The position numbers and the translations under genes are program-made. The notes beneath the pieces were generated by a model that had not been told where the DNA came from, made no database searches, and worked only from the letters and a program-made list of their open reading frames with translations. Below are positions 7,523 to 16,377 of a stretch of DNA of 64,000 bases, one piece after another. The first letter of the stretch is position 1. The number at the start of each line of letters is the position of its first letter. This DNA is from an uncultured Acidimicrobiales bacterium (GTDB lineage Bacteria; Actinomycetota; Acidimicrobiia; Acidimicrobiales; SZUA-35): contig CALAJQ010000029.1 in the NCBI GenBank assembly GCA_937922785.1, positions 62,001-126,000 on the forward strand, given 5' to 3'.

Positions 7523-8413
7523 TTAGCCGGCGAACTGGGCTTGTAGGTCTATGACTTCGGGAAGACCGATGATGTCGGTGAAGTCGTCGAATCCCGGCAT
7601 GTCCTTAACCGCTTCGACTGGAGTTCCGTCTGCCTTCAGTTTGGCCAAGACCTCTTGCATGGCTTTGGTGGCGGCCAGCAATGTTGAGATGGGCATGATG
7701 ATCATCGCGAACCCAAGCTCAACGATTTCGGCCTTGGTTAACGGGGGAGTTTTGCCACCTTCAGCCCAGTTGAACACCAGCGGAATGTCTGACAGTTCCT
7801 TCGCCACGGTCTTCAGCTCATCCATGTTCTGCAGCGCTTCAACAAACAACACATCCGCGCCAGCGGCCCGAGCGGCCCGAGCCCTGGCAAGAGCGGCGTC
7901 TAACCCGTGAGGAGCTCTGGCATCAGTTCGGGCGATGATTGTGAAGTCTGGGTTCCGTCGGGCCTCGACCGCAGCACGAACCTTGGCTTCGAATTCTGTA
8001 GCCGGCACAACAACTTTGCCTTCCATGTGGCCACAGCGTTTCGGCATGACCTGGTCTTCGATGTGAAGCCCGGCCACTCCGACCCGCTCATAGGTCTGAA
8101 CTGTGCGGATGACGTTAATGGGGTTGCCATAACCAGTGTCGGCGTCGGCAATTACGGGAAGATCGGTTGCTGCAACAATGCGGGCGGCATGGTCGGCCAT
8201 CTCCGACATTCCAAGAAGCCCAACGTCAGGTCGACCCAGCAACGAAGCTGACGCTCCGAATCCAGTCACGTAGACGGCGTCGAAATCTGCTTGCTCGATA
8301 AGGCGTGCTCCAAGCGCGTCATAGCATCCGGGCAACAGAATCGGACCCGGGCTTGAAAGCAGTTCTCGAAATCGGGCCGGACCGTCAGGTGAGTTGCGAA
8401 GTAGCTGAGACAT
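7523..8413 (-). CDS. Isocitrate lyase/PEP mutase superfamily enzyme
   Basis: A 296-residue TIM-barrel enzyme that makes or breaks C-C or P-C bonds alpha to a carboxylate. Mg-binding DADTGYGN (Asp90, Asp92) and the active-site loop KRCGH (residues 125-129, Cys127) identify the lyase branch, which includes isocitrate lyase, methylisocitrate lyase, dimethylmalate lyase and oxaloacetate decarboxylase, rather than PEP mutase. It is much shorter than isocitrate lyase proper and closest in layout to methylisocitrate lyase-like members. A -10-like TAACCT sits 6 nt before the ATG, suggesting a leaderless mRNA divergent from the isochorismatase gene 23 bp away. The exact substrate is unknown; C3/C4 product handling from N-heterocycle breakdown is a guess. 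Confidence 0.85.
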   Translation of the reverse strand: MSQLLRNSPDGPARFRELLSSPGPILLPGCYDALGARLIEQADFDAVYVTGFGASASLLGRPDVGLLGMSEMADHAARIVAATDLPVIADADTGYGNPINVIRTVQTYERVGVAGLHIEDQVMPKRCGHMEGKVVVPATEFEAKVRAAVEARRNPDFTIIARTDARAPHGLDAALARARAARAAGADVLFVEALQNMDELKTVAKELSDIPLVFNWAEGGKTPPLTKAEIVELGFAMIIMPISTLLAATKAMQEVLAKLKADGTPVEAVKDMPGFDDFTDIIGLPEVIDLQAQFAG

Positions 8414-8436
8414 GCCGACAGGTTAGATTCAAGACC

Positions 8437-9096
8437 ATGGATTCGGAGACCTCAATTAGCTACGAGAACGCCGGATTTGGAAATCGCACCGAATTCGGAA
8501 CGGCTCCGGCAGTCGTTGTGGTGGACATGTGCAGCGCATATTTTGACCCCCAGTCGCCTCTGTTCCTGAACCGTGCTGAAGTGGCCGATGCGGTCCGCCA
8601 ACTTGTTGCCGACGCCCGAAATTGCGCTGTACCAGTGGTATGGACCACGGTTGAGTACGAAGCCGGAGGTGCAAACGGCGGAGTCTGGTATCAGAAGCTA
8701 CCCAAGATCTTGAATTCCTTTGATGCAGGTAATCCGTTGCGAGATTGGCTTCCTGGCCTTCATCCCGGAGGCGACGAACTAGTAATAGCCAAACAACACG
8801 CCAGCGGATTTTTCGGCACTGACTTAGCTAGCCAACTCCAACAGTTGGGAGCTGATTCGTTGCTGATTGCCGGGGTTTCAACTAGTGGTTGCGTCCGGGC
8901 CACTGCCACTGACGCCTCCGCCCATGGGTTTAAACCGTTTGTAGTGCGCCAGTGTGTTGGGGATCGGACCGACCAAGTTCATGAGTCGAACCTTTTTGAT
9001 CTGAACGCGAAGTACGCCGACGTGATCGATCAGGCCCAAGCCAGCGCTTACCTCCTCAGCATCGCCCCAGCTAACCCAGCTAACCCAGCCAATTGA
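8437..9096 (+). CDS. Isochorismatase-family amidohydrolase (N-carbamoylsarcosine amidase type)
   Basis: A 219-residue cysteine hydrolase with the family triad visible: Asp30 (VVVVDM), Lys119 (VIAKQHASGF) and nucleophile Cys152 in GVSTSGCVRATATDA. The SGCVRATA signature is typical of N-carbamoylsarcosine amidases and maleamate amidohydrolases; RutB, which hydrolyses the RutA product, is in the same superfamily. As the next gene is rutA, this enzyme may do the RutB step (inference). The ATG at 8437 is chosen because TAGATT lies 7 nt upstream (leaderless pattern) and the longer frame runs into the divergent gene. The C-terminus is a PAN-PAN-PAN repeat encoded by a 9-bp tandem repeat. Confidence 0.85.
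   Translation: MDSETSISYENAGFGNRTEFGTAPAVVVVDMCSAYFDPQSPLFLNRAEVADAVRQLVADARNCAVPVVWTTVEYEAGGANGGVWYQKLPKILNSFDAGNPLRDWLPGLHPGGDELVIAKQHASGFFGTDLASQLQQLGADSLLIAGVSTSGCVRATATDASAHGFKPFVVRQCVGDRTDQVHESNLFDLNAKYADVIDQAQASAYLLSIAPANPANPAN
9067..9093 (+). repeat. 9-bp tandem repeat at 3' end of amidohydrolase gene
   Basis: Three copies of CCAGCTAAC (the last one diverged) lie in frame just before the stop and encode Pro-Ala-Asn three times. The tail is beyond the conserved domain, so it is probably a slippage product with no catalytic role. Confidence 0.85.
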
Positions 9097-9146
9097 CCCA
9101 GCCGGGTGACTTGCTCGTGACCGACGTCACAGGCTAGACCGATCTA

Positions 9147-10196
9147 ATGGACCTTGGAATATTCATACCTATTGGCAACAACGGCTGGATGATGTCGAAG
9201 AACGCTCCGCAGTACATGCCGAGCTTTGACCTCAACCGAACAACCGCAGAACGGGCTGAAGCTGCAGGCTTTGAGTTCTTGCTCAGCATGGTGAAACTGC
9301 GCGGTTTTGGTGGCGACACCGAATTCTGGGACCACAACATGGAGTCCTTCACCCTTATGGCTGGCCTTGCCGCCGCCACAGAGAAGATCAACCTGTTTGC
9401 GTCGGTCGCTTTGCCGACCATGGAACCAGCGATGGTTGCCCGCATGGCTTCCACCATCGATGACATTTCCGATGGCCGTTTTGGCATCAACATCGTGTCT
9501 GGTTGGAACCAGATTGAGTACTCACAGATGGGCGTCTGGCCCGGTGACTGGTACTACGAGAAGCGATATGACTACGCCACCGAGTACGTGAAAATCATGA
9601 AGGAGCTTTGGTCCGATGGGGTTAGCGACCTTAAGGGCGAGTACTTCCAGATGGATGACTGCCGCCTATCTCCGCCGCCAAAGAATGGGGGAGTGCCTCT
9701 TGTTTGCGCCGGTCAGTCCGATCGCGGCATGGAGTTCTGCGCCGAATACGGCGACTACCAGTTCATTATTGGCACCGGAGACTTTGACCAAGTACGGGCC
9801 GATGCTGCTCGCTTGGTTGCTGCCGCGGACAAGTCTGGCCGAGACGTGGGCATCTACGTCTTGTTCCAGATCACCATGGGTGACACTGACGAAGAGGCAG
9901 AAGCCAAGTGGCAAAGCTACAAAGACGGCGCTGACCTAGAAGCAATCAAATTCATGACTGGCCAGGCTGAGCTGGACACCGCCGGTGCAACTGCGGAGAA
10001 GATCACAGAGATGCAGGGCGCGTTCAACTTGAACATCGGTCCGATCGTTGGCAGCCACGCAACTATTGCGGGCAAGCTCGATGAGATCTCCGAAATACCG
10101 GGTGTCAAAGGTGTCATGTGTGTCTTCGACGACTATCCGGTTGCCACTCAAGAGTTCGGCGAGAAGATCATGCCGCTCATGAAGTGCCGTAGCTGA
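9147..10196 (+). CDS. rutA: Pyrimidine monooxygenase RutA
   Basis: FMN-dependent luciferase-fold monooxygenase that opens the uracil ring between N3 and C4 to give (peroxy)ureidoacrylate. From memory, the protein (349 residues) matches E. coli RutA along its length: IPIGNNGWMMS, APQYMPSFDLN, KLRGFGGDTEFWDHN, ESFTLMAGLAA, MGVWPGDWYY, KGEYFQMDDCRLSP, CAGQSDRGM and a C-terminal EFGEKIMPLMKCR. This is stronger than a generic LLM-family assignment. No RutC, D, E, F or G homologue is adjacent; only the divergent isochorismatase-type gene could supply the next step. A TAGACC hexamer lies 6 nt upstream of the ATG. The gene is followed immediately by a convergent nitroreductase gene. Confidence 0.92.
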   Translation: MDLGIFIPIGNNGWMMSKNAPQYMPSFDLNRTTAERAEAAGFEFLLSMVKLRGFGGDTEFWDHNMESFTLMAGLAAATEKINLFASVALPTMEPAMVARMASTIDDISDGRFGINIVSGWNQIEYSQMGVWPGDWYYEKRYDYATEYVKIMKELWSDGVSDLKGEYFQMDDCRLSPPPKNGGVPLVCAGQSDRGMEFCAEYGDYQFIIGTGDFDQVRADAARLVAAADKSGRDVGIYVLFQITMGDTDEEAEAKWQSYKDGADLEAIKFMTGQAELDTAGATAEKITEMQGAFNLNIGPIVGSHATIAGKLDEISEIPGVKGVMCVFDDYPVATQEFGEKIMPLMKCRS

Positions 10197-10778
10197 CTAC
10201 TCGGGTCGGGGCTGTGGCGTCAGTCCCTTGAAGGCGAACTGCTCTGTAGGCATGCGCGGGCTTGGGACTTCTTTGGCTTGGAGCTTTTCAGGCAGGGCAG
10301 AAGCGTCGCCCTGGTAACCAAGCGCAAAGCCACACAAGATGTTCGCTTTCTCTGGATCAAGGCCCGTCTTTTCAAAGGCCAGATCCAACTCGACCCCGCC
10401 CATGAGGTGCACCGACAATCCAAGCATTGTGGCTTGATGAGTGAAGCTCATAGTGGCGGCGCCGGTATCAAAGTCTGCTGTACGAGCCATAAAGCCTTCA
10501 AGGCCAGGTCGGGCAATGATCAACCCAATCACAGGAGCTTTGGTGGCCCAGCCGCGGTTGAACTCAGAGATGATCGCCTCCATGTCGGCGCGATCGGGTC
10601 CATCGGTCTCATACAAAAACAGCCATGGCTGGTTGTTCATCCAGCTGGGGGCCCACCGGGCCGCCTCAAACAAGGCACTTAGCTGCTCATCGCTGACGGC
10701 CTTGTCGCTAAAGGATCTTGGTGACCAGCGGTCAAGAAATACTGAGTCGGTTAACGGGGATGCTGAGGTTCGCTCCAT
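10197..10778 (-). CDS. Nitroreductase-family FMN oxidoreductase
   Basis: A 193-residue flavoprotein of the NfsB/FRase fold. FMN-binding features include the N-terminal RWSPRSFSDKAV and AARWAPSWMNNQPW blocks (the Arg and Ser/Asn residues that hold the phosphate and isoalloxazine) and the C-terminal CGFALGYQGD. It probably reduces quinones, nitro compounds or an activated C=C or aldehyde with NAD(P)H. RutE, the malonic semialdehyde reductase of the rut pathway, is also a nitroreductase-fold protein, but this sequence does not resemble RutE closely. TAGAGT lies 6 nt before the ATG on the minus strand. The stop abuts the rutA stop in a convergent arrangement. Confidence 0.85.
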   Translation of the reverse strand: MERTSASPLTDSVFLDRWSPRSFSDKAVSDEQLSALFEAARWAPSWMNNQPWLFLYETDGPDRADMEAIISEFNRGWATKAPVIGLIIARPGLEGFMARTADFDTGAATMSFTHQATMLGLSVHLMGGVELDLAFEKTGLDPEKANILCGFALGYQGDASALPEKLQAKEVPSPRMPTEQFAFKGLTPQPRPE

Positions 10779-12580: not shown

Positions 12581-13312
12581 TTAGCAGCCGCCCGTCGATT
12601 TCCTATCTGGAATCGACGGGTCGACCACCTCGATATGCACGTGACCCCAGGCAGGCGATGCAGTGTAAGCATCCACCTGGGAGTCAAACGGCAACAGTCG
12701 AGCCCCAACCGAAACCTGGGTTTGGCCCCCGATGACAGTGTCGCCTGCGCTAACTGTTAGGTCACGGATGTGGAACATCTTGACCTCCCAGCCGGGCTGA
12801 CCGTCAGGTTCAATTACCAGGAAGTTGTCCGAGTGCTGGCAATAAAGCGTGTAGCTGCCGGCCCTGATGACTCGCCCGTCTATAGGTGACACGATTGCGT
12901 TCGCCGGATCTACCACGATGTCCGCAGCTGTCCTTGAGGCGTTGCCGCGGTTGCGGGTGTCCATCACAATCCATGCCGCGGTTGACTCTGTTACCTCCAT
13001 TTGTTGGGCACCGTCATGGGATGACTCGTGGAAGCCGATTCGCTCGACACTGCGAGCGGGGTGTAGCAGCTCAAGGCCACCGGTAGTAGCGAAGATCGGA
13101 TACTCACGACTTTCAACAATCCGCTCAAGCCCGGTCCAAGGCGGCGGCTGGGGCGGAAGCGTTGTAGAGCTCTCAGGGGCGGGTGCGGAAGTAGTTGTGG
13201 GCGCAAGCGAAGTCTCGGTGAGCTCAACTGGCGCCGAACCGGCAGAACCCGAAGAGCCGCAGCCAGCCAATATGAGGCCAGCGATGACGGCTACTGAACG
13301 GCGGCAGTTCAC
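12581..13312 (-). CDS. Lipoprotein with degenerate M23-like domain
   Basis: A 243-residue exported lipoprotein. The GTG at 13312 is chosen because it overlaps the upstream stop (GTGA) and gives a clean signal peptide with lipobox LAGC (Cys18); the longer frame adds a non-signal-like extension. A Ser/Thr/Pro-rich linker to about residue 65 precedes a globular domain. Its second half resembles the M23/LytM beta-fold (SPIDGRVIRAGSYTLYC, later WGHVHIEVVDP), and the final HVHIEV matches the metal-binding H-x-H strand of M23 peptidases. The first His/Asp ligand is not obvious, so it may be inactive. It is translationally coupled to the bicupin gene. Confidence 0.7.
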   Translation of the reverse strand: MNCRRSVAVIAGLILAGCGSSGSAGSAPVELTETSLAPTTTSAPAPESSTTLPPQPPPWTGLERIVESREYPIFATTGGLELLHPARSVERIGFHESSHDGAQQMEVTESTAAWIVMDTRNRGNASRTAADIVVDPANAIVSPIDGRVIRAGSYTLYCQHSDNFLVIEPDGQPGWEVKMFHIRDLTVSAGDTVIGGQTQVSVGARLLPFDSQVDAYTASPAWGHVHIEVVDPSIPDRKSTGGC

Positions 13313-14298
13313 GGTAGGCCCACGAAGTCGACGGCCAGGACTTTGCATGGCCCATAGGAGTCCAGCTGGTGGTTCTGACCGCCAGGGATGACAACACAGT
13401 CGCCGGCGGACATTGGGTGAGTCTCGTCTTGGTAGGTCACGCCAATCTCACCATCGAGGACAACAAGGAGCTGACTTTCGCACTCGATGTTGGTGACAAA
13501 ACTGCGGGCCTGGGATTCAGCCCGGTGCACGTACACCTCGGCCACGCCACCGGTTGCGGTTCCCAGTCCGAAATCGCAGGTCTCGAATCCTGCGTAGGGG
13601 CCAGCTTGCCAATTCGCCTTTGAGTCTTCATGCATCCAATACCGCTGGCCCCGGTAGTCCCGGGTTGGGTTCAGCGAGGCCGTTGGCAGCTGAAGCTTGA
13701 GGTCGGCAAAGGTGTCATGGACCGCCGGCGCTGCGACCTCCACTACTTCCAGGCCGGCGGAACTTTCAAGAACCTGGTGTCGAATATGGGGCGGCTGCAA
13801 CACACAATCTCCGGCCGAGGCCACAAAGGGTTCGCCTTGGTCTTCATAGACCAACCGAACCCAACCTGAGTGCACGTAGATCATCTGGAAACAGATGTTG
13901 TGGAAGTGCACGTAGTCGGCCACAGGTCCAGCGTCAGCGATGTGAATGTGGGAGGCAATTATCCTGCCGCCCTGCCGGGACGGAACAAGATCTCGGTAGG
14001 CCATGCCGGCCCGGCCGTCGCCAAAGTTGGGATGGTCCGCCAGCCTCGTCAGCTCGAACTCGGGTTGGCTCTTAGGCATCTGAGGCGCCGCTTGAACCGA
14101 GCGCAGCTGAACGTCGGAGCCTTCAGCCATCAACTGAATCGAGTGGCCGTCTTTAACTAGCAACGCCACAGACGGGTCATCAGCAGGGGAAATCTGAGCC
14201 ACTCTAAATCCAGAACGAGTTAGCTTGCCAAGATCGCCGGCGAAGTCCAGGGTGGTTCTGTGCTCGCCGATTGGCTCGCTAGCTGCAGGCTTGGACAT
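13309..14298 (-). CDS. Bicupin protein, unknown substrate
   Basis: A 329-residue protein with two cupin barrels. The first, about residues 105-195, has the metal-site pattern in DYVHFHNICFQMIYVHSGWV followed by AGDCVLQPPHIRHQV. The second, about 245-325, has LLVVLDGEIGVTYQDE and SAGDCVVIPGGQNHQLD, with fewer His ligands. It could be a dioxygenase or isomerase such as gentisate/homogentisate-type enzymes, but neither is clearly matched. TACTCT lies 7 nt before the ATG. It diverges from the GrdB-like selenoprotein gene with only 34 bp between starts, which suggests shared control and perhaps a shared substrate. Confidence 0.72.
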   Translation of the reverse strand: MSKPAASEPIGEHRTTLDFAGDLGKLTRSGFRVAQISPADDPSVALLVKDGHSIQLMAEGSDVQLRSVQAAPQMPKSQPEFELTRLADHPNFGDGRAGMAYRDLVPSRQGGRIIASHIHIADAGPVADYVHFHNICFQMIYVHSGWVRLVYEDQGEPFVASAGDCVLQPPHIRHQVLESSAGLEVVEVAAPAVHDTFADLKLQLPTASLNPTRDYRGQRYWMHEDSKANWQAGPYAGFETCDFGLGTATGGVAEVYVHRAESQARSFVTNIECESQLLVVLDGEIGVTYQDETHPMSAGDCVVIPGGQNHQLDSYGPCKVLAVDFVGLP

Positions 14299-14332: not shown

Positions 14333-15295
14333 ATGACGCGAGAGATGATTGCAGGCGCATCCGACCTAGAGCCAGCGGACTACATCGCCGAAACGAAACG
14401 CCTTTATGACGGTCTCGGTTTCGATTCCTATCGCTGGGCCCACAACCCAGAACCCCCAGCATGGCAGCCGATCACGAAGCCGCTAAGTGAGTCCAAGGTG
14501 ATGTTGATCGGCTCGGGCGGTATCTATCGAACCGGCCAAATCGCATTCCACACTAAGGACGACACTTCGGTCAGGGTCATCGACGCAAACACCGAATCAA
14601 GCGAGCTGCGCACCGCACATTTTGCTTATGACCAAACTGACGCACGCGAAGACCCAAACTGTGTCTTTCCGCTAGAGCGGCTTCGGGAGCTAGCGGCTGA
14701 AGGCGTCATTGGAAGCCTGAACGGGAACGCATACGGGTTCATGGGAGGCATCTATTCGACCCGGCGCACGTTGGCTGGCACGGCTGAGATATTGCTGGGG
14801 CAATGCCGGGCCGAGGAGCCAGACCTGGTTCTCCTGGTGCCGGTATGACCGGTTTGTCACCAGTCGGTCGGTCTGATCGCACGCCTTCTAGAAGCAAATG
14901 GATTTCCTACCATCGGGCTGACCTCGGCCCTTTCGATTACCCAAAGCGCTAACCCGCCAAGGTCGGTGTTTGTTGACGCCCCGCTTGGCCATACCGCCGG
15001 GCCGCCTAACGATCCTGAGATGCAAAGGCAGATTCTCACTGAAGCCCTGGTTGGCGCTGTCGAGATGACCGCGCCGGGTGTAATTCGGTTGCCTTATCGG
15101 TGGCACAACGACGGGTGGCGAAGCGACGCGTTGGGCTGGAGTCGTAAGCGTGAATCCGCTGGTGGCGCTAAATCACTTGCTGGCGATACGCGCCAAGATC
15201 GATCCGAAGAGCCCAAGTATCAGAACGAAGCGGACAGGCAAGCGGCACAAGCAATCTCCAACGATGATCAATGCCTTACGTGTCTAGGTCTCTAA
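14333..15295 (+). CDS. GrdB/PrdB-family selenoprotein (TGA read as selenocysteine)
   Basis: Member of the glycine/sarcosine/betaine/D-proline reductase selenoprotein B family (320 residues if the TGA at 14846-14848 is Sec172). Before the TGA, DLVLLVPV matches the strand that precedes Sec in GrdB/PrdB. After it, PVCHQSVGLIARLLEANGFPTIGLTSALSI and the D-P-L-G-H-x-x-G-P-P-N-D-P block match the post-Sec half. The active motif is U-P-V-C-H-Q-S, i.e. UxxC with the second family Cys replaced by Ser. The ATG at 14333 follows TACGGT by 6 nt. Classical members reduce C-N bonds in anaerobes; here the partner subunits (GrdA, GrdC/D, PrdA) are absent, so the reaction is unknown. The last codons run into a 16-bp tandem repeat. 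A SECIS is less clear than in the other selenoprotein gene. Confidence 0.86.
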
Positions 15296-15380
15296 GTGGT
15301 CTGGTCTCTAGTAGGTCTGGTCTCTAAGGGGTCTGGTCTCTAGTAGGTCTGGTCTCTAGCAGGTCTGGTCTCTAGCAAAC
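15285..15380 (+). repeat. 16-bp tandem repeat array (6 units)
   Basis: Six consecutive units of CTGGTCTCTAGTAGGT with a few substitutions, starting at 15285, 15301, 15317, 15333, 15349 and 15365; the first and last are most diverged. The array begins inside the last four codons of the selenoprotein gene (the TAA is in unit 1) and ends 20 bp before the aldo/keto reductase start. No strong hairpin is formed. It looks like a slippage-prone minisatellite. Confidence 0.9.
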
Positions 15381-15399
15381 CTCAGTTAGGGTCATCTTG

Positions 15400-16377
15400 A
15401 TGACTGAAATGACATATCGCAGGTTGGGACGTAGCGGGCTGAAAGTGAGCACGCTTTCTTATGGGTCTTGGGTGACATTCGGCGGCCAGCAGGGTCTTGA
15501 TGCGGTCACCGAGTCGATGCAGGCCGCGTGGGACGGCGGGTGCAACTTCTTTGACAACGCAGAGGTCTACGCCAAGGGAGAGTCCGAGACACTGATGGGC
15601 CAGGCGTTACAAGAGTTCGGTTGGGACCGCGAGAAGTATGTAATCAGTACCAAGTTTTACTGGGGCATCGTTGATGATGTGAACACTAAGTTCACGTTGA
15701 ACCGCAAGTACCTAATGCAGGCAATCGACCGTTCGCTTGAGCGCTTACAGCTCGACTTCGTGGATCTTGTCTACTGCCACCGGGCCGATAAAGAGACCCC
15801 AATCGAAGAGACCGTCTTCGCCATGCACGACATGATCAGTCAGGGCAAGGCGCTGTACTGGGGCACATCTGAGTGGAGCGCCGACGAAATCCGCGCCGCC
15901 TATGAGATCGCCGAACGTCACCATCTACACAAGCCAGTCATGGAACAGCCTGAGTACAACATGCTGAACCGCACCAAGGTTGAGACCGAATACGCCCGGC
16001 TCTATGAAGACATTGGATTGGGCACAACTATCTGGAGTCCGCTTGCCGGTGGTTTGTTGACAGGCAAGTATCTGGACGGGATCCCCGAAGACAGCCGAGC
16101 CAACCTCAAAGGTCACGACTACCTCAAGGACCGGATGGGTACTGATGAGGCCGTCGCCATTATCAAGCGGGTCGTAGAAGTAGCGGCTGAGTTGGACTGC
16201 AAGCCTTCGCAGCTAGCGCTTGCGTGGTGTGCTGCAAACGAGAACGTCTCGAGCGTCATTACGGGCGCCAGCCGAGTTAGTCAGGTTGTGGAGAACATGG
16301 AAGCAATCGCAGTGCTAGAGGCGCTAACACCGGAGTTAATGGCTCGCCTAAACGGCGAAGACCTAGAAGTGGCCTAG
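15400..16377 (+). CDS. Aldo/keto reductase (AKR6/K+ channel beta-like)
   Basis: NADPH-dependent carbonyl reductase, 325 residues, TIM barrel. The AKR tetrad is visible: Asp in [15 protein letters not shown], Tyr in the same block, Lys in VISTKFYW and His in [10 protein letters not shown]. The N-terminus [18 protein letters not shown] and the C-terminal [17 protein letters not shown] cofactor block are typical of the AKR6/AKR12 groups, which include Kv-beta-like and YghZ-like enzymes. The ATG at 15400 is preferred over the TTG at 15397 because TAGGGT lies 7 nt upstream. The physiological aldehyde or ketone is unknown. It may be transcribed alone, as the upstream repeat array separates it from the selenoprotein gene. 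Confidence 0.88.

What the first reader, a model, noticed from the sequence alone, without database searches (positions are those of the whole stretch)
14333..15295. GrdB/PrdB-like gene split by an in-frame TGA: second selenoprotein, in an apparently aerobic genome
Seen: DLVLLVPV-TGA-PVCHQS in one frame, with 149 codons following. Established: glycine, sarcosine, betaine and D-proline reductase B subunits carry Sec in a UxxCxxC motif after a hydrophobic strand. Here it is UxxCxxS, with no GrdA, GrdC/D or PrdA partner nearby, and the gene faces a bicupin gene. A stand-alone B-like subunit implies a different reaction from the classical anaerobic reductases.
Basis: partly seen in the sequence, partly recalled or inferred. 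Interest (0 to 1): 0.88.

Follow-up and report, generated by a model that had tools for sequence, protein, structure and literature searches.

The report
Stand-alone proline-reductase-like selenoprotein in apparent aerobes
A bacterial gene that looks broken by a stop codon really encodes a selenium-containing enzyme related to a subunit of an anaerobic amino-acid reductase, but here it seems to work without the usual partner protein and carries its own extra pair of sulfur residues, so its true reaction is still to be found.

Summary
Observation confirmed. The frame 14333-15295 is one 320-residue gene whose TGA (14846-14848) encodes selenocysteine, by comparative evidence. The genome has SelA, SelB, SelD and tRNA-Sec. 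The aligned codon is TGA in 83 of 83 genes read from this and related genomes and in 79 of 80 named loci; the exception, Blastococcus tunisiensis, has TAG and a tRNA-Sec with anticodon CUA. A covarying SECIS hairpin starts 17 nt downstream (weak in the window's own copy). The protein is homologous to PrdB, the Sec subunit of D-proline reductase (36% identity over 218 residues), but is not D-proline reductase: it scores half the PrdB cut-off, and the pyruvoyl-subunit family and GrdA were found in none of 33 related genomes with non-GrdB matches (32 read). New here: a C-terminal CxxC arm (74 of 82 distinct subfamily tails), UxxU variants whose SECIS lies 17 nt after the second UGA, and up to 7 matches per genome. 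Inferred mechanism: Sec attacks a small substrate directly, Cys175 resolves, the CxxC arm recycles. Sec 'PrdB' has been listed in marine selenoproteomes since 2005, so this is a variant of a known kind.

The parts
14333..15295 (+). Stand-alone PrdB-like selenoprotein gene, 320 residues, ATG start
   Evidence: TIGR04483 E 7.9e-45, below its equivalog cut-off; PF07355 35.8 bits, above its cut-off of 22
14846..14848 (+). UGA codon for selenocysteine, residue 172
   Evidence: TGA at this column in 83 of 83 genes read from this and related genomes, the window among them, and in 79 of 80 named loci; TAG in Blastococcus with a CUA tRNA-Sec; Cys in 5 phylum members and 2 alphaproteobacteria
14855..14857 (+). 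Cys175, presumed resolving residue (UxxC)
   Evidence: 76 of 82 stand-alone proteins have Cys and 6 have Asp; Sec here in two genomes, UPIUHQS
14861..14875 (+). bSECIS hairpin; 5-nt apical loop GGTCG at 14866-14870, starting 17 nt after the UGA
   Evidence: Signature in 134 of 141 distinct sequences against 105 of 2686 control windows from the named genes; stem covaries. In the window one stem pair is U.U, and the free RNA does not fold best this way (z -0.04)
15272..15283 (+). C-terminal CxxC (C314-L-T-C317), presumed mobile redox arm
   Evidence: CxxC tail in 74 of 82 distinct subfamily-A tails; 0 of 44 in groups B, C, E, F, G and 1 of 14 in D; also in the Blastococcus protein
15185..15202 (+). 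Tail motif D285-x-R287-x-x-R290, beyond the end of classical PrdB
   Evidence: All three residues invariant in 57 aligned proteins
13309..14298 (-). Bicupin gene, divergent neighbour (context only)
   Evidence: Cupin_2; no homologue in 160 homologous loci
15397..16377 (+). Aldo/keto reductase, downstream neighbour (context only)
   Evidence: PF00248 222.7 bits; no homologue in 160 loci

Best explanation
The gene encodes a soluble selenoenzyme built on the PrdB (Sec-bearing) subunit of D-proline reductase but working without a recognisable pyruvoyl subunit (PrdA/GrdE) and without GrdA. Shown by comparison: Sec is encoded, and PrdB homology spans the whole catalytic core. Strongly supported by absence across genomes: no recognisable pyruvoyl or GrdA partner. 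Inferred: the selenolate of Sec172, at the start of a helix after a beta strand, attacks a small electrophilic substrate directly. That is most likely an activated carbon-heteroatom bond whose leaving group is not an amine and so needs no Schiff base; an oxidised S or O centre is the alternative. Cys175 then attacks the selenium, releasing the reduced product and leaving a selenenylsulfide. The C-terminal CxxC arm (C314, C317) opens that bond and passes the charge to a cellular thiol system such as thioredoxin. Paralogues would serve different catabolic substrates.
For: Sec: machinery; conserved codon; the codon follows the anticodon: TAG with CUA; SECIS. Homology. No partner: in 61 related genomes PF09338 and PF04723 were found only in G045 and G056, whose PrdB-model match is GrdB-type (G045 tested; G056 inferred from GrdA on the same contig), and in 0 of the 33 other genomes with a match, 32 of which were read; PF09338 in 2 of 49 further genomes with the subfamily; PF09338 does detect a real PrdA. 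Resolving residue: Sec replaces Cys175 in two genomes, a fully paired SECIS stem then lying 17 nt after the second UGA. C-terminal CxxC. Geometry: strand 165-169, helix 173-188, mean pLDDT 91.7. Non-amine precedent: fluoroacetate reductase FarB/FarE, proposed Sec attack on C-F (PMC10838667, passages). Substrate diversity: groups A-G, up to 7 matches per genome, beside differing catabolic-looking genes (neighbours named by eye).
Against: Six of 82 stand-alone proteins (group B) have Asp in place of Cys175, so an internal resolving thiol is not universal. Eight of 82 distinct subfamily-A tails, and nearly all proteins of the other groups, lack the CxxC arm. No conserved operon names a substrate. 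FarB, the precedent for a non-amine leaving group, still has a GrdE-type partner. Two of 49 further genomes do carry PF09338, and whether they also hold a classical B subunit was not checked. The related genomes are drafts of 55 to 99% estimated completeness, so a single absence means little. The window's own SECIS is not the best fold of the free RNA (z -0.04). No solved fold matches convincingly (best Z 7.8), so the active site could not be compared. Coordinates of the model were not available, so the arm's reach to Sec172 was not measured.
Confidence: 0.55

Rival explanations
1. General thiol-based antioxidant enzyme: the UxxC site reduces peroxides, disulfides or sulfoxides, as in the UxxC Prx-like and Trx-like selenoproteins, and has lost the carbon chemistry of PrdB.
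For: UxxC, CxxC and UxxU pairs are typical of thiol redox proteins; an MsrB-like gene (named by eye) lies divergent to it in 17 loci of close kin; a Prx-like selenoprotein lies 3.0 kb upstream in the window; selenoproteome tables class proline reductase with thiol redox proteins (PMC1088965, PMC1794560, passages).
Against: The PrdB core, with D107, P113, D164, E187, G190, R210, G219 and G223, is kept, which a generic redox site would not need; many diverged paralogues per genome point to several specific substrates; neighbours look mostly catabolic (by eye).
Confidence: 0.3
2. It is a pyruvoyl-type reductase after all, with a carbonyl partner too diverged for PF09338, or with a self-made carbonyl on its own chain.
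For: Glycine and D-proline reductase are described with a protein-bound carbonyl, pyruvoyl in the latter (PMC10298544, passages); two further genomes with the subfamily, proteobacterial by title, have PF09338.
Against: PF09338 was found in none of 33 related genomes with a non-GrdB match and not in 47 of 49 further genomes, while it finds PrdA and GrdE-type controls; no recurrent neighbour exists that could be the partner.
Confidence: 0.12
3. The TGA is a true stop, a pseudogene or a sequencing error.
For: Only the general prior; the window's own SECIS fold is weak.
Against: Same codon in 83 of 83 and 79 of 80 genes, TAG with a CUA tRNA-Sec, Cys homologues, covarying SECIS.
Confidence: 0.02
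4. Classical D-proline reductase PrdB (Stickland-type).
For: 36% identity over 218 residues, same UxxCHxS motif.
Against: 153 bits against the PrdB cut-off of 300, which a true PrdB passes at 422.6; no PrdA-type gene found.
Confidence: 0.01

Closest known systems
PrdB, 26-kDa Sec subunit of D-proline reductase (TIGR04483)
   Same: Core aligns with one gap, 36% identity over 218 residues; Sec, Cys at +3, His at +4 and Ser at +6 all shared
   Different: No PrdA or pyruvoyl partner found; PxUP instead of AGUG around Sec in the 82 stand-alone proteins read (two more distant phylum members, L244 and L246, depart from PxUP); about 60 extra C-terminal residues with DxRxxR and CxxC; half the family cut-off score
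GrdB / GrdF / GrdH selenoprotein B of glycine, sarcosine and betaine reductases (PF07355, TIGR01918)
   Same: Part of the model homologous (PF07355 35.8 bits, model 218-319 of 347); Sec after a strand
   Different: Below the TIGR01918 cut-off (41.7 against 65.45); UxxCxxS, not UxxCxxC; no GrdA or GrdE found
'Proline reductase PrdB' family of marine selenoproteomes (Sargasso 42 sequences; GOS 235 Sec and 110 Cys)
   Same: Same label, pfam07355, UxxC motif, surface water; the window protein very probably belongs to this set
   Different: Those lists assign the name by homology and, in the passages read, say nothing of partners, a C-terminal arm or UxxU; no sequence-to-sequence comparison was made here
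NCBI-annotated 'glycine/sarcosine/betaine reductase selenoprotein B family protein' (Roseomonas, Haematobacter plasmids)
   Same: Stand-alone, in organisms taken to be aerobic (recalled), 37-39% identity
   Different: Cys in place of Sec: PNCPVCHQT, PNCPICHQT
FarB/FarE fluoroacetate reductase (Synergistota)
   Same: GrdB-type Sec protein proposed to displace a non-amine group
   Different: Anaerobic, operon-encoded, with a GrdE-type partner (PMC10838667, passages)

Membership tests
Bacterial selenoprotein | In-frame UGA conserved at one column, exchanging with Cys in homologues | tested here: met
   83 of 83 genes read; 79 of 80 named loci plus one TAG; Cys forms
Bacterial selenoprotein | SECIS hairpin 16-37 nt after UGA with G in the loop start | tested here: met
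   134 of 141 distinct sequences against 105 of 2686 controls; in the window itself the stem has a U.U mismatch and the free fold differs
Bacterial selenoprotein | selA, selB, selC, selD in the genome | tested here: met
Bacterial selenoprotein | Selenium in the protein | not testable with these tools
   needs 75Se labelling or mass spectrometry
D-proline reductase PrdB | Equivalog score of at least 300 bits to TIGR04483 | tested here: not met
   153.1 bits; true PrdB 422.6
D-proline reductase PrdB | Pyruvoyl proprotein PrdA in the genome | tested here: not met
   PF09338 not found in G000 nor in the other related genomes with non-GrdB matches, 0 of 33 in all; it does detect PrdA
D-proline reductase PrdB | UxxCHxS motif after a hydrophobic strand | tested here: met
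   UPVCHQS against UGTCHRS
D-proline reductase PrdB | Electron donor PrdC | not tested
   no search made
D-proline reductase PrdB | D-proline to 5-aminovalerate activity | not testable with these tools
   needs an enzyme assay
GrdB family | PF07355 gathering score | tested here: met
   35.8 against 22, over model positions 218-319 of 347 only
GrdB family | TIGR01918 subfamily cut-off | tested here: not met
   41.7 against 65.45
GrdB family | GrdA in the genome | tested here: not met
   PF04723 only in G045 and G056 of 61 genomes, not in G000
GrdB family | UxxCxxC motif | tested here: not met
   UPVCHQS
Marine 'PrdB' selenoprotein family (GOS/Sargasso lists) | pfam07355 match with UxxC Sec motif | tested here: met
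   table read; sequences of those lists not compared
UAG-Sec code of Geodermatophilaceae | tRNA-Sec with CUA anticodon and TAG at the Sec site | tested here: met
   Blastococcus tunisiensis L220 and L226; this concerns the homologue, not the window

The most novel reading that the evidence does not exclude
A widespread class of pyruvoyl-independent, single-chain selenoreductases for aerobic catabolism: PrdB-type Sec chemistry freed from its cofactor subunit, with an internal thiol relay (UxxC or UxxU plus a C-terminal CxxC arm) replacing the partner proteins, and paralogues each cleaving a different carbon-heteroatom bond.
Probability: 0.35. Interest if true: 0.82.

Novelty: new variant of a known kind. 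Interest (0 to 1): 0.6.

Why it matters
D-proline and glycine reductases are textbook anaerobic selenoenzymes whose chemistry is thought to need a protein-bound carbonyl. A family that keeps the Sec subunit, shows no such partner and occurs (by record title) in Acidimicrobiales, Acidobacteriota, Binatota, Chloroflexi and Proteobacteria implies an unassigned Sec-dependent reaction, perhaps in the presence of oxygen; oxygen use was not tested here beyond the RutA gene of the window. It could also explain why 'PrdB' is among the commonest selenoproteins in ocean metagenomes. The one-protein design makes it directly testable, and the Blastococcus TAG form and the UxxU forms are natural experiments on Sec coding and on the resolving residue.

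Tried and rejected
Conserved operon partner: rejected. The bicupin and aldo/keto reductase of the window have no homologue in 160 homologous loci (21 of the 80 named loci carry proteins identical to ones in the other 80, and several loci are cut by contig ends). Clusters shared by many loci reflect close kinship: acyl-CoA synthetase, enoyl-CoA hydratase and PAP2-like in Acidimicrobiales; MsrB-like and others in Holophagales and kin. The names are by eye.

Fold search: no PDB match at E <= 0.001 with Foldseek, and the best VIA-align Z is 7.8 (microcystinase C, 158 aligned, rmsd 4.0), within the range the tool calls uninformative. No viral match at E <= 0.001. No convincing relative among solved structures by sequence (best E 0.97 and 0.048). 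Absence from these lists shows nothing about the fold.

Generic free-energy test of SECIS: uninformative, since 117 of 237 control windows pass beside 76 of 81 real ones; replaced by the fixed-position stem and loop test.

Other TGA read-through candidates in the window: only 10972 looked real (Prx-like); the rest were judged by eye and not followed.

Not in print: by the listings of searches and the passages read, no paper treats stand-alone PrdB-like proteins, their C-terminal CxxC, a UAG form or a UxxU form; the library is open-access PMC only. UxxU is in print for a Prx-like 2 family (PMC2398784, passage). Papers seen as passages: PMC2398784, PMC1088965, PMC13188914 (also its section 9), PMC1794560, PMC5029168, PMC9402790, PMC10298544, PMC5330540, PMC10838667, PMC9312934. 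None was read whole.

Counts to keep in mind: one search listed 114 matches in 35 of 61 genomes, 108 with one TGA and 6 without a stop (several of them partial; two span the Sec region and may be Cys forms, not read). The 83 proteins read come from 33 of those genomes and include the window, its two paralogues and one GrdB-type protein (L135); 31 matches, among them those of G011 and G056, were not read. In one search, 43 matches in 35 of 149 genomes include some GrdB-type genes that were not separated; 5 of the 43 have no stop. One search covered 49 of the 80 named loci's genomes (plus one control plasmid); L142-L165, L167, L173, L177, L189, L197, L211 and L221 were not included. Control windows come from the named genes only.

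Full report
What is there. The frame 14333-15295 (+) holds one TGA (14846-14848), which reads as residue 172 of 320 in DLVLLVPV-U-PVCHQS. The protein matches TIGR04483 (PrdB) at 153 bits, E 7.9e-45, over model positions 17-235 of 238, and PF07355 at 35.8 bits, cut-off 22. It aligns to the PrdB of a Terrisporobacter plasmid, which lies beside prdA, with 36% identity over 218 residues and one gap; the Sec codons fall at the same place. A profile of 57 relatives aligns to that PrdB over 232 columns with 100% probability.

It is a selenoprotein. The 4.9-Mb genome, in which the window is C29:62001-126000, encodes SelA and SelB side by side, SelD (with its own TGA) and a tRNA-Sec with anticodon TCA. 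In 61 related genomes the PrdB model finds 114 matches in 35 genomes, 108 of them with exactly one TGA and none over the PrdB cut-off. I read 83 proteins from 33 of these genomes, including the window, its two paralogues and one GrdB-type protein; 83 of 83 have TGA at the aligned column. A scan of 84,980 species genomes, with an alignment of the half before the Sec and so blind to Sec or Cys, gave 248 relatives of this subfamily. Of the 80 kept, 79 have TGA and one has TAG. That one is Blastococcus tunisiensis, and its genome has a tRNA-Sec with anticodon CUA. UAG-coded Sec is known in Geodermatophilaceae for formate dehydrogenase, UGSC and AhpC (PMC5330540, passages). A codon that follows the anticodon is strong evidence that the site is read as Sec.

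The SECIS. In the 141 distinct sequences a five-nucleotide loop 17 nt after the UGA scores far above other positions. Its stem is 99-100% paired at four positions, against 62-96% expected from base composition, and 79% at two more, against 43-45%, through changes such as CAGAC/GTCTG, GCGTAC/GTACGC, GGGCGC/GCGCCC and GTGTC/GACAC. At least four of five pairs plus a loop xG[TG] occur in 134 of 141, against 105 of 2686 control windows from the named genes. Against this, the window's own copy has a U.U mismatch, and its RNA alone does not prefer the hairpin (z -0.04), whereas the Blastococcus copy does (z -2.63).

It is not D-proline reductase. PF09338, which detects PrdA, occurs in 2 of 61 related genomes, G045 and G056, which are also the only two with GrdA. 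The PrdB-model match of G045 is GrdB-type (184 bits to TIGR01918); that of G056 was not read but lies on the contig of its GrdA. The 33 other genomes with a match, 32 of them read, show neither family. Of 49 further genomes that hold the subfamily, 47 lack PF09338 and 2 have it. What does differ is the setting: P-x-U-P in the 82 stand-alone proteins against AGUG in PrdB; L244 and L246, more distant phylum members, depart from P-x-U-P.

Anatomy. An AlphaFold2 model from 57 sequences has mean pLDDT 91.7 and pTM 0.92. Sec172 sits between strand 165-169 and helix 173-188. PrdB ends at residue 241, while this protein goes on for about 60 residues with an invariant D285-x-R287-x-x-R290 and, at the very end, C314-L-T-C317. 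A C-terminal CxxC is present in 74 of 82 distinct tails of the same subfamily (the window among them), in 1 of 14 of group D and in 0 of 44 of groups B, C, E, F and G. The Blastococcus protein has it too. The tail of the model is its weakest part (pLDDT 61 for the last ten residues). Residue 175 is Cys in 76 of 82 stand-alone proteins and Asp in 6. In two genomes of one other family of the phylum, of different genera, it is Sec: UPIUHQS. There a fully paired stem and a CGTGC loop lie 17 nt after the second UGA, while the same test from the first UGA gives a partial stem. Five phylum members and two alphaproteobacterial plasmids have Cys for Sec. Exchange of Sec and Cys at both places marks the pair as redox partners.

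Distribution and setting. By record title the subfamily occurs in Acidimicrobiales, Holophagales and Thermoanaerobaculia, Binatia, Chloroflexi, gamma- and deltaproteobacteria and Blastococcus. The window's own genome is taken to be an Acidimicrobiales draft because contigs of its close kin match named contigs in length and protein. Related genomes carry up to 7 matches; the proteins fall into motif groups A-G, of which D is not one clade in the tree. In a sample of 149 genomes of the phylum 35 have a match; some of these are GrdB-type and were not separated. No gene accompanies the family throughout; the bicupin and the aldo/keto reductase are in none of 160 loci. Same-strand neighbours of the paralogues look like catabolic genes: acyl-CoA dehydrogenase, enoyl-CoA hydratase, CoA transferase, amidohydrolase, flavin monooxygenases, fumarylacetoacetase-like. 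These were picked from the list and named by eye, not by a model. In the window a RutA (508.5 bits, cut-off 498.3), an isochorismatase-type hydrolase, a nitroreductase-type protein and a Prx-like selenoprotein lie within 7 kb upstream.

How it may work. In D-proline reductase, as reviewed in PMC10298544 (passages), the substrate is held on a pyruvoyl group of the other subunit and Sec attacks the alpha carbon; a thiol then cleaves the selenoether. [quoted passage not shown] Here the Sec side is intact and the pyruvoyl side is missing. I infer direct attack on a substrate that needs no Schiff base, resolution by Cys175, and recycling by the C-terminal CxxC arm. The fluoroacetate reductase FarB/FarE is a precedent for a non-amine leaving group, though with a GrdE-type partner (PMC10838667, passages). 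That several diverged copies exist per genome suggests several substrates. The main rival is a general thiol antioxidant enzyme; I cannot exclude it.

Novelty. 'Proline reductase PrdB' has been a named marine selenoprotein since 2005 (42 sequences, PMC1088965) and 2008 (235 Sec and 110 Cys, PMC2398784), and proline reductase made up 6.4% of marine selenoprotein genes in a 2021 survey (PMC9402790); all passages only. The kind is therefore known by name. The lack of the pyruvoyl partner across genomes, the C-terminal arm, the UAG form and the UxxU form did not turn up in my searches.

Noticed in passing
   Followed up: partly
window 7523-10778: Catabolic-looking cluster: RutA (TIGR03612, over cut-off), isochorismatase-type hydrolase (weak RutB and biuret hydrolase matches), nitroreductase-type protein (weak malonic semialdehyde reductase match) and a methylisocitrate-lyase-like protein below cut-off; perhaps a partial pyrimidine (Rut-like) route.
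   Followed up: partly
L257 (G186:C4:546600-549000) and L258 (G219:C19:13800-16300): Two PrdB-like genes with two in-frame TGAs nine bases apart (UPIUHQS); the full SECIS stem lies 17 nt after the second TGA, raising the question how the first is decoded.
   Followed up: partly
L220 6496-6498; L226 1501-1592: Blastococcus tunisiensis: PrdB-like gene with TAG at the Sec site and a tRNA-Sec (Rfam) with CUA anticodon, which ARAGORN calls tRNA-Pyl.
   Followed up: yes
L089, L081, L091, L087, L098, L118: Group B paralogues have Asp instead of the resolving Cys (UPLDHQT), so an outside thiol may resolve the Sec.
   Followed up: no
P0003 (Terrisporobacter PrdB): PrdB has a weak match (E 9.5e-5, 22.4 bits against a cut-off of 125) to the UGSC (seleno)protein family, hinting at distant kinship of two abundant marine selenoprotein families.
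   Followed up: no
L211 (CAMAVY010000021.1): A contig titled Klebsiella pneumoniae MAG carries this gene; the title is probably wrong.
   Followed up: no
L139 7968-10353: In Roseomonas the Cys form of the gene lies next to SelO, convergent.
   Followed up: no
window 15292-15377: Short tandem repeats of about ggtctggtctctag at and just after the stop codon of the gene, seen by eye in the sequence.
   Followed up: no
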